From Burkholderia vietnamiensis LMG 10929 (GTDB taxonomy: Bacteria > Pseudomonadota > Gammaproteobacteria > Burkholderiales > Burkholderiaceae), in the NCBI RefSeq assembly GCF_000959445.1, contig NZ_CP009631.1, forward strand, positions 992,001 through 1,056,000: a stretch of 64,000 nt of DNA, written 5' to 3'. Each line of letters begins with the position of its first letter. Position 1 is the stretch's first letter. The position numbers and the translations under genes were made by a program. The notes under the pieces were generated by a model. The model saw only the letters and a list, made by a program, of their open reading frames with translations. It was not told the DNA's origin and searched no databases. Shown in pieces: positions 49,714 to 51,546 of this stretch.

Positions 49714-50182
49714 CGGCGTGGGGCGGCGGCGACGCCACTGCGCGGCGGATGTGGACAACCGGCATTTCGCTCAATCGAAATGCTGTGCAAGCGACCGGTG
49801 AGCATGCGGCGCAAGCCTGAAGCGGCGCGGCTTTGCGGCGGTTGGCGCGGGCGCGCCGGCGTGTGCATTAGCCGACGTTGCGCATGCGCGGGCGGCCAAC
49901 CTCCGCGCGATGTCGGTTGTGGATATCTCGCTTCGCACGCAGTCGCAATGCTGTGCATTTGGTCGGTGAGCATGCACCCGTGGGCAAGAATGCCTGCCGC
50001 AGCATGTGGACAACCTGGCGCGCAACGACGAAAAACGCTGTGCTCGCGGACGGTGAGCGCCGGCGTCCGCTCGCGTGTGACGCTTGCGCCGCGCGGGCTT
50101 CCGCGCGCCGCACGACATTCGGCACGTTGCGCGTTCAGGCGCTCGGCTCGCTTCGACGATCGATCGCGCGCGCGTTTCGCGT

Positions 50183-50191
50183 TGTGGATAA
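50183..50191 (-). promoter_or_regulatory. Perfect DnaA box inside a repeat unit
   Basis: TGTGGATAA is the reverse complement of TTATCCACA, the strict DnaA box. It forms the left end of the repeat unit 50183-50237. Confidence 0.6.
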
Positions 50192-51081
50192 CTTGCCGCC
50201 GAACGCAGTCGCAGCGCTGTGTATTCCGATGGTGAGCGTCGCGGCCCGGTCGCGCCCGAGGTCTGCCTGCGTGGCCTAGCGCGTTCCCGTGGACGGCTTC
50301 GGCGGTCGCGCATTCTAACCGCACTCGCGATCGCGCGTTTCATTCGACTGCTTGCCGCGATGTGGATATGCGCTCGCCCGAACCAGTCGATGTGCTGTGT
50401 ATCCCGACGGTGAGCGCCGATGCGTGCGGCGCGGCCGCGTGCGCGCGAGCCCCGGCGCGCGGGGCTGCGCGGCATCGCTCGCGTCGGTTCGCGCCCGAAT
50501 CGGCGGTCGTCATGCGATACCCCGCCGACGCTCACCGTTCGATTTCACAGTGTTGCGAGTGGTTGCGTGGGTGAGTTGTCCACATCGATCTCCCGATCGC
50601 CGCTCACCCTTGAAGTGCACGGCGTTTCGAGTGATCGCGGAAAGGGCCGTTCATTCCCGAATCGGCGCGACCGTCCGATCGATTTGCCGTCGCTCACCGT
50701 CGGAATGCACAGCGTTCCGAGTCGTGATGGGTGGGTTCTATCCACAGCCAAATCGGCCTCCTCATTCGCTTGCGTGCCGCTGCTCACCATCGGAACTCAC
50801 AGGGTTTTTAGTGTGTGGCTGCCCCCGAGGTGCCCCGCACCTACACGCTTCCGCGCCTGCCGCGCCGGCAGTAAATAGAGCATCGCGAGCCGCACACCGC
50901 TGCGGACAATCGCCCCCGCTCAATCGACTCGCAATCCTGTGCATTGGACCGGTGAGCGTCGCCGCCGCATCGGCGGGAAGCGGGCAGGCGGGTGTGGATA
51001 TCCGGCCTCCGCATCGACTCGCAGCCCTGTGGATTTGAATGGTGAGCGCCTCGATCCGCTGGATGGGCGGGCCGATTGCGT

Positions 51082-51090
51082 TGTGGATAA
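51082..51090 (-). promoter_or_regulatory. Second perfect DnaA box inside a repeat unit
   Basis: TGTGGATAA again matches TTATCCACA on the other strand, at the left end of unit 51082-51137. Other units carry ATATCCACA, CTATCCACA or TTGTCCACA, one or more bases off the strict box. Confidence 0.6.
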
Positions 51091-51546
51091 TCCACCCCCC
51101 GACGACACTCGAAACGCTGTGCAATCGACCGGTGAGCGTCCGCCTGCAGCCGGGCGTTGTGGATATCCGGCGCCCGCGACCAATTCGAACGCTGTGCATT
51201 TCACGGGTGAGGACGCTAGAGATCCGCCGCGCAAACCGTTGCCGCGCGGCCTTGCGCGCACGTGCCGCTGCTCCCGCGGCCGCCGCCTCGCCGCGTGAGC
51301 GCTGCAGCGCGCCCGCCCGTCTCGACATGCGCCGCGAGCCGCCCAGCGGCCTGCGGCAGAACTCTCTCAATTCCGCTGCAAAACCTGCGCAGTCTTTCTC
51401 GCTTCGACGCCGCGTCAGCAAGATGAGAAAAAACTTTCTCGCCTTCCCGCGAAAAAATAGAGCCATCCCGCTGCTCGCGGCCGGCGTCGTCCGGCGCCGC
51501 GGCGCGCGGCCCGGCACAGCACAAAGCACAATCAGGAGACATCCCC

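What the first reader, a model, noticed from the sequence alone, without database searches (positions are those of the whole stretch)
49750..51212. Array of 13 divergent ~55-bp repeats with a fixed-spacing core in a gene-free 1.5 kb region
Seen directly: 13 units of 54-57 bp, most starting TGTGGAYA and 12 of 13 holding CTGTG and then, exactly nine bases later, GGTGAGC (the 13th unit reads CCGTG-N9-GGTGAGC, and the last unit ends GGTGAGG). Spacing between units is irregular (about 17-125 bp) and middles diverge strongly, so this is not a recent tandem duplication. Fixed spacing of the two core blocks despite diverged flanks suggests each unit is a binding site or a structured element. I do not recognise it as REP, BOX, ERIC, a CRISPR or iterons. 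Inference: a sequence-specific protein recognises each unit.
Basis: partly seen in the sequence, partly recalled or inferred. Interest (0 to 1): 0.88.

Follow-up and report, generated by a model that had tools for sequence, protein, structure and literature searches.

The report
Origin-like repeat array on chromosome 1
A gene-free stretch of the main chromosome in one group of Burkholderia carries around a dozen copies of a three-part DNA site that looks like parts of the cell's replication origins, so it may help time the copying of its several chromosomes.

Summary
In detail: 13 units lie at 49750-51212 (9 on +, 4 on -). All 11 exact matches to CTGTG-N9-GGTGAGC in the 6.93-Mb genome are in this array. 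A profile of the units finds three further, degenerate copies below E 0.01, about 250 kb away near the chromosome-1 origin region. Units occur in 52 of 65 genomes of the genus and in no other genus among 398 family genomes. Boxes are 83-100% identical between species; spacers are 48-59%. Most units join a DnaA-box-like 9-mer, a CACAG site (methylated in B. cenocepacia, per literature) and GGTGAG, which matches half of the chromosome-2 iteron. In the 1.0 Mb sampled, only the array and origin regions are CACAG-dense, and chromosome-2 origins have more CACAG in the array-bearing genomes examined. Best explanation: an extra-origin, initiator-binding replication-control site, working like datA/DARS or crtS. 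No protein binding or function is shown. The bound protein is uncertain: box 1 prefers ATATCCACA to TTATCCACA, and the iteron half stands alone.

The parts
49750..51212 (.). Whole array of 13 units between a hexapeptide-repeat acetyltransferase gene and the indolepyruvate oxidoreductase gene
49750..49803 (+). unit 1: box 1 TGTGGACAA, CTGTG-N9-GGTGAGC
49918..49971 (+). unit 2: box 1 TGTGGATAT
50005..50058 (+). unit 3: box 1 TGTGGACAA
50183..50237 (+). unit 4: box 1 TGTGGATAA, exact DnaA box
50361..50415 (+). unit 5: box 1 TGTGGATAT
50530..50584 (-). unit 6: box 1 TGTGGACAA
50602..50632 (-). unit 7: core only (CCGTG variant), no box 1
50692..50746 (-). unit 8: box 1 TGTGGATAG
50782..50812 (-). 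unit 9: core only, no box 1
50901..50957 (+). unit 10: box 1 TGCGGACAA (two mismatches to the DnaA box)
50993..51047 (+). unit 11: box 1 TGTGGATAT
51082..51137 (+). unit 12: box 1 TGTGGATAA, exact DnaA box
51158..51212 (+). unit 13: box 1 TGTGGATAT, core ends GGTGAGG

Best explanation
The array is a non-coding replication-control site on chromosome 1 that binds replication-initiator protein. It works like datA/DARS or crtS: an extra-origin cluster copied early, about 250-320 kb from an origin-region marker in 11 of 12 genomes, whose duplication and change of methylation state alter how much initiator is free or active. Shown: three boxes in most units (DnaA-box-like; CACAG; GGTGAG), strong conservation of the boxes, presence at only two places in the genome, both on chromosome 1, and the CACAG density otherwise seen only at origin regions in the sequence sampled. 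Inferred: that DnaA binds box 1, that methylation of CACAG switches binding at box 2, that the chromosome-2 RepA contacts GGTGAG, and that the outcome is timing of chromosome 1 and/or 2 initiation.
For: (a) In 968 kb of chosen stretches of this genome the densest CACAG 1-kb windows are two chromosome-1 origin-region clusters (14 and 12), the c2 origin (11), the c3 origin (10), this array (9) and the region of dnaA (7), then 5 or fewer; 40 kb more adds a peak of 8 beside mnmG/parS. (b) 10 of 13 box 1 copies lie within one mismatch of TTATCCACA, two exact. (c) Three degenerate units lie about 1.5-2 kb from a DnaA-box cluster of the origin region; in the 7 relatives where both positions are listed, such a second cluster lies 1.4-12 kb from the origin marker. 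(d) Box 3 AAnGGTGAG matches AAAGGTGAG of the c2 iteron: of 5000 column shuffles of iteron / of unit, 1 / 0 reach the score at width 8, 1 / 1 at width 10, 3 / 5 at width 12 (13 of the 15 iterons); with all 15, 0 of 60 at widths 8, 10 and 12 and 1 of 60 at width 16. The c3 iteron does not match. (e) C stands before box 1 in only 7 of 356 (3 of 337 by a stricter box), so CACAG is avoided there although CTGTG is kept in box 2. (f) CACAG/CTGTG near c2 iterons, per 2 kb: 21, 28, 22, 23, 29 in 5 array-positive genomes against 6, 6, 10, 5, 12, 5, 16 in 7 array-negative ones. (g) Boxes conserved, spacers not. (h) Distance to the origin marker 251-317 kb in 11 of 12 genomes.
Against: Box 1 is ATATCCACA in 194 and TTATCCACA in only 19 of 356, so it is not tuned to the usual DnaA consensus. 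Box 2 has two or more mismatches to it in all 463 units. E. coli DnaA prefers pairs 2-3 bp apart (PMC11317965, abstract and passages), here 35 bp. The other half of the c2 iteron (TTTTCGGG) is missing. The distance does not track chromosome sizes as a crtS set for simultaneous termination would (r = -0.14 with all 12, 0.12 without G009). 13 of 65 genus genomes have no unit. Origin clusters of two array-negative genomes also show CACAG peaks of 8-9 per kb, so the origin signature is not confined to array-bearers. The CACAG survey covers about 15% of the genome. No binding data exist, and the presence of the methyltransferase in this genome was not tested.
Confidence: 0.5

Rival explanations
1. 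A dedicated DNA-binding protein of the B. cepacia-complex lineage, not an initiator, reads CTGTG-N9-GGTGAG plus box 1 and uses the two clusters as anchors for nucleoid organisation or segregation of the origin domain.
For: Only two target clusters in the genome, both on chromosome 1; clade-restricted, 52 of 65 and 50 of 398 genomes; the most conserved boxes are GGTGAG and CTGTG rather than the DnaA-like box; many sites in one place are typical of centromere-like loci (established knowledge, recalled).
Against: No candidate gene among the four neighbours examined (a solute-binding protein, a K+ channel, an acetyltransferase and an oxidoreductase). It does not explain the shared CACAG density with the origins or the box-3 match to the c2 iteron.
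Confidence: 0.27
2. A regulatory array for transcription of the indolepyruvate oxidoreductase gene or the acetyltransferase gene.
For: It ends 335 bp upstream of the oxidoreductase start codon.
Against: Both strands are used in blocks and units span 1.5 kb; no sigma-70-like promoter found; the same units occur near the origin region, away from these genes; the acetyltransferase was found in only 6 of the 10 array-bearing loci (one of the other 4 is cut short) and the oxidoreductase lacks the array in 70 of 80 loci.
Confidence: 0.08
3. A neutral or selfish satellite-like tandem repeat of about 89 bp that expands and decays without function.
For: The 86-91 bp period is strong (228 of 400 spacings); the number of matching units per genome varies from 8 to 22 (origin-proximal units included); runs of near-identical units occur in some relatives.
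Against: Between species GGTGAG is 94-100% and CTGTG 92-98% identical while spacers are 48-59%, below third codon positions of the next gene at 85.5-86.4%; no genome in the genus search shows a remnant of 1-7 units at E <= 0.001 (strict filters).
Confidence: 0.09
4. Transcribed structured RNA elements or small RNAs.
For: Regular units in an intergenic region.
Against: No Rfam match; no consensus structure in 48 diverse units, 0 predicted pairs; no promoter-like site.
Confidence: 0.03

Closest known systems
datA and DARS1/DARS2 of E. coli (PMC4585315, PMC5010248: start of abstract in the search listing only)
   Same: Non-coding, extra-origin, at a conserved distance from the origin, with several DnaA-box-like sites.
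   Different: A dozen or so repeated units with CACAG and GGTGAG boxes; box 1 mostly ATATCCACA; no IHF or Fis site was looked for; no biochemistry.
crtS of Vibrio cholerae (PMC5991422, PMC11711613: start of abstract in the search listing only)
   Same: A site on chromosome 1 that carries part of the chromosome-2 initiator's recognition sequence, in a genome with secondary chromosomes.
   Different: Many units; only half an iteron; distance not related to chromosome sizes; no dependence of chromosome 2 shown; absent from 13 of 65 genus genomes although all 65 have a c2-type RepA match.
7-mer CTGTGCA clusters at the B. cenocepacia origins (PMC4948915, passages) with CACAG methylation (PMC7364216, abstract and passages)
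   Same: The second box of the units is the same CTGTG(CA) / CACAG motif.
   Different: The published clusters are at the origins; this array is 250-320 kb away and has a three-box design. I found no mention of it in the passages read.
Iteron arrays of Rep3-family replicons
   Same: Multiple short sites; GGTGAG shared with the c2 iteron CTCCCGAAAANNCTCACC.
   Different: No rep gene among the four neighbours, 35-bp paired boxes, iteron half only.

Membership tests
datA / DARS-type DnaA control locus | Cluster of DnaA boxes outside the origin | tested here: inconclusive
   10 of 13 box 1 copies within one mismatch, 2 exact; over related arrays only 19 of 356 exact and ATATCCACA preferred
datA / DARS-type DnaA control locus | Conserved distance from the origin | tested here: met
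   251-317 kb in 11 of 12 genomes, 545 kb in G009; may also reflect conserved gene order
datA / DARS-type DnaA control locus | IHF (and Fis) binding sites | not tested
   No scan for IHF or Fis sites was made
datA / DARS-type DnaA control locus | Changes the ATP/ADP state or free level of DnaA | not testable with these tools
   Needs biochemistry
crtS-type checkpoint | Located on chromosome 1 in a genome with secondary chromosomes | tested here: met
   Contig C3 holds dnaA; C2 and C4 hold Rep3-type initiators with iterons
crtS-type checkpoint | Bound by the chromosome-2 initiator | tested here: inconclusive
   Half-iteron match only; no exact full c2 iteron on chromosome 1, the one match with a mismatch lies elsewhere
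crtS-type checkpoint | Position set so that chromosomes finish together | tested here: not met
   No relation between distance and (L1-L2)/2 over 12 genomes
Plasmid-type iteron array | Direct repeats of the full initiator site beside a rep gene | tested here: not met
   Pattern GGTGAGNNTTTTCGGG has no match with fewer than 3 mismatches in the window; 8 with 3 mismatches, one of them in the array; no rep gene among the four neighbours
CRISPR | Near-identical repeats with regular unique spacers | tested here: not met
   Mean column identity 71% among units, both strands used, uneven spacing; cas genes were not searched
REP/BOX/ERIC-type dispersed repeat | Scattered over the genome | tested here: not met
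   Two places only at E < 0.01 (the 150 best of 3697 first-look candidates were scored)
Structured RNA element | Conserved base pairs | tested here: not met
   0 pairs; no Rfam family

The most novel reading that the evidence does not exclude
The array is a communication hub between chromosomes that arose in the Burkholderia cepacia complex. Each full unit couples a chromosome-1 initiator site (DnaA-like box), a methylation switch (CACAG, kept in box 2 and avoided at box 1) and half of a chromosome-2 iteron, so that passage of the chromosome-1 fork sets the start of the secondary chromosomes. It would be a second, independently evolved solution to the problem that crtS solves in Vibrio.
Probability: 0.22. 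Interest if true: 0.92.

Novelty: new variant of a known kind. Interest (0 to 1): 0.74.

Why it matters
How bacteria with several chromosomes coordinate their replication is known for very few cases (crtS in Vibrio, methylation-based control in Agrobacterium, per PMC13342612 passages). That paper reports that chromosome 2's origin in B. cepacia contacts a large part of chromosome 1 and names the identification of further timers as an open task. This array is a concrete, deletable candidate, conserved across the group, and it offers a use for the unexplained CTGTGCA 7-mers and CACAG methylation at Burkholderia origins. Another paper (PMC11925244, passages, citing earlier work) states that deletion of all three adenine methyltransferases raises the loss of the third replicon.

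Tried and rejected
RNA element: no Rfam hit and no consensus structure. CRISPR, REP/BOX/ERIC: not met (membership rows). Full iterons of c2 or c3 in the array: not found. c3 iteron resemblance: not above shuffles (8, 41, 44 and 46 of 60 shuffles reach it at widths 8, 10, 12 and 16).

Link to c3: 51 of 52 array-positive genomes carry a c3-type RepA of at least 95% identity, but so do two array-negative genomes (G025, G053), and G009 has the array without it. Shared ancestry alone could give this, so I do not claim dependence.

Plasmid-collection blast: in the 20 rows listed of 377 records only the acetyltransferase part of the query matched. A combined two-box pattern with strict bases found 0 in the own genome; the looser pattern gave 10 in the own genome, 8 or more in all 52 array-positive genomes except G024 (7), and 0 to 5 in the 13 array-negative ones; these counts include a few conserved single sites outside the arrays. 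The exact core also has 0 to 3 matches in each of the 13 array-negative genomes.

Selection effect to keep in mind: the 463 units were chosen by a matrix over -10 to +23, so conservation of CTGTG and GGTGAG in that set is partly built in; box 1 (-36 to -24) lies outside the matrix. The species comparison does not use the matrix.

Full report
OBSERVATION. The region holds 13 units, 9 on the + and 4 on the - strand. The core CTGTG-N9-GGTGAGC is exact in 11; one unit has CCGTG and the last has GGTGAGG. In the window, 23 matches with up to two mismatches stand against 6.95 expected from shuffles, none of 100 shuffles reaching 23. In the whole genome (6,930,496 bases, 4 contigs) the exact core occurs 11 times, all in this array. 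No Rfam family, tRNA or promoter-like site was found there, and none of 10 overlapping ORFs scanned (of 16 listed) matches Pfam.

ANATOMY. Each complete unit has box 1, TGTGGAYA or a close variant; then, 33-36 bp from box 1 to CTGTG, a partly conserved ACTCGNAACG leading into CTGTG; nine bases; and GGTGAGC. Over 463 distinct units from 48 loci scanned, box 1 is found in 356, at -34 in 285 and -33 in 66. This set was chosen by a matrix covering -10 to +23, so box 1 is an independent finding while the strength of CTGTG and GGTGAG is partly built in. Box 1 is most often ATATCCACA read on the other strand (194 of 356), then TTGTCCACA (51), ATGTCCACA (51) and TTATCCACA (19). The base before box 1 is C in only 7 of 356, so the CACAG motif is avoided there, whereas box 2 is itself CTGTG, that is CACAG on the other strand. 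Adjacent same-strand units are mostly 86-91 bp apart (228 of 400), or 174-182 bp (49), with smaller groups near 156 and 168 bp.

WHERE IT OCCURS. A profile of the 13 units (R1) searched over the whole own genome gives the 13 units and three degenerate ones at C3:793643-794015 (E 8.5e-7, 8.9e-5, 0.0022); the next hit has E 0.2 (the 150 best of 3697 first-look candidates were scored). Those three lie about 1.5-2 kb from a DnaA-box and CACAG cluster at 791.7-792.4 kb of the same contig, which also holds dnaA at 823.7-824.1 kb. Nine relatives from which I fetched a second cluster show units there too; where its position and that of the origin marker are both listed (G002, G007, G008, G009, G011, G018, G023) they are 1.4-12 kb apart. 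With R1, 52 of 65 genus genomes have 8-22 matching units, origin-proximal ones included, and 13 have none at E <= 0.001. With a broader model (R2), 50 of 398 family genomes match, all in one of 25 genera. At the oxidoreductase locus of 80 named genomes, 10 have the array (L106-L112, L114, L176, L181: B. latens, B. territorii, B. cenocepacia, B. ubonensis, B. pseudomultivorans and five unnamed species), with 8-16 units found in them, one locus being cut short; 70 do not, including Paraburkholderia, Caballeronia, Trinickia, Pandoraea and four loci labelled Burkholderia at 85-91% identity (L113, L117, L154, L166). Five of those 70 hold 3.1 kb or less upstream of the gene, or start inside it, so absence there is weaker (L123, L141, L165, L174, L185). 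In 27 of the 70 the match to the kir gene ends within 0.5 kb of the oxidoreductase, so the array, often with the acetyltransferase (6 of 10), sits in a gap that is nearly closed there. That the positive clade is the B. cepacia complex is my reading of these names.

CONSERVATION. Aligning the array with three relatives (L108, L176, L106), GGTGAG is 97, 100 and 94% identical, CTGTG 92, 97 and 98%, box 1 88, 90 and 83%, the stretch before CTGTG 75, 79 and 66%, the nine middle bases 55, 61 and 52%, and spacers 56, 59 and 48%; third codon positions of the neighbouring gene are 85.5, 86.3 and 86.4%. Boxes are thus kept while spacers are free to change.

LINK TO REPLICATION. In B. cenocepacia the 7-mer CTGTGCA was reported clustered at the origins of all three chromosomes with unknown meaning (PMC4948915, passages read), and CACAG was reported as a methylation motif present at those origins (PMC7364216, abstract and passages). 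In 968,367 bases of this genome, chosen to include the origins, the densest CACAG windows are 791.75 kb (14 per kb), 744.5 kb (12), the c2 origin (11), the c3 origin (10), this array (9) and the region of dnaA (7); then 5 or fewer. Another 40 kb adds a peak of 8 beside mnmG and parS at 718 kb. In this sample of about 15% of the genome the array is the only peak of 7 or more outside an origin region. The c2 and c3 origins were identified by Rep3-family initiators and iterons. Box 3 matches the inner half of the c2 iteron: of 5000 column shuffles of the iteron / of the unit, 1 / 0 reach the score at width 8, 1 / 1 at width 10 and 3 / 5 at width 12 (13 of 15 iterons; with all 15 gives 0 of 60 at widths 8-12 and 1 of 60 at width 16). 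The outer half of the iteron is missing, and the c3 iteron does not match. At the c2 origin, CACAG/CTGTG counts in 2 kb are 21-29 in 5 array-positive genomes and 5-16 in 7 array-negative ones, although the iteron core is the same in all 12. At chromosome-1 origin clusters, two array-negative genomes have peaks of 8-9 per kb and one array-positive genome 11-14. Array and CACAG enrichment thus go together, but the groups are also clades and CACAG at origins is not confined to array-bearers.

POSITION. In the 12 genomes with the origin marker and the array on one contig (of 31 of 65 in which the marker was found), the distance is 251-317 kb in 11 (mean 278, sd 20) and 545 kb in G009. It does not follow half the size difference of chromosomes 1 and 2 (r = -0.14 with all, 0.12 without G009). 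The marker belongs to the 792-kb cluster; the working origin may instead lie near 718-745 kb. Fixed relative distance is known for datA and DARS (PMC5010248, start of abstract in the listing) but may also follow from gene order.

LINK TO THE THIRD REPLICON. 53 of 65 genomes have a c3-type RepA of at least 95% identity; 51 of the 52 array-positive ones do, and so do 2 of the 13 array-negative ones. G009 has the array and no such RepA. Natural loss of this replicon is reported (PMC11925244, passages). No dependence is claimed.

MECHANISM. I commit to an extra-origin, initiator-binding replication-control site, at 0.5. The alternatives I rate next are a dedicated lineage-specific anchor protein (0.27), a neutral satellite (0.09), a local transcription regulator (0.08) and RNA elements (0.03). 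The weakest point is the identity of the bound protein: box 1 departs from the E. coli consensus at its first base, the paired boxes are 35 bp apart while E. coli DnaA prefers 2-3 bp (PMC11317965, abstract and passages), and the iteron half stands alone.

NOVELTY. Searches for the core, for the 7-mer with Burkholderia and origin, for DARS/datA with Burkholderia, for crtS and iterons with Burkholderia, for CACAG methylation with Burkholderia and replication, for B. cepacia-complex tandem repeats with DnaA, and for pC3 with DnaA showed no paper on this array among the titles and abstract starts listed (capped lists in several); I read passages only, of PMC4948915, PMC7364216, PMC13342612, PMC12371093, PMC11317965 and PMC11925244. 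That TTATCCACA is the DnaA box is general knowledge and is also stated in PMC4948915.

Noticed in passing
G000 contigs C2, C3, C4, e.g. L015, L016, L018: CTGTTAACTTTCGCGGTGAGC occurs in 10 identical copies (3 on C2, 1 on C3, 6 on C4), a dispersed element that is not part of the array.
   Followed up: no
G000:C4:3665-3680 and G000:C2:28618-28864: A full c2 iteron sits alone on the third replicon, and a second small c2 iteron cluster lies about 100 kb from the main one on C2 (if C2 is circular).
   Followed up: no
G000:C3:744900-745300 and 791700-792400 (L079, L081): Two origin-like clusters 47 kb apart share TATACATACGTA, DnaA-box-like sites and dense CACAG; which is the working origin of chromosome 1 is open.
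   Followed up: partly
G009 contig C1 (L200): The only array-positive genome without a c3-type RepA is also the only one of 12 with the array much farther (545 kb) from the origin marker.
   Followed up: partly
c2 origins, L307-L318: CACAG/CTGTG counts around the c2 iterons are 21-29 per 2 kb in 5 array-positive and 5-16 in 7 array-negative genomes, with the same iteron core.
   Followed up: partly
box 1 of units in related arrays: C is nearly absent before TGTGGA of box 1 (7 of 356), which keeps the CACAG methylation motif out of that box.
   Followed up: partly
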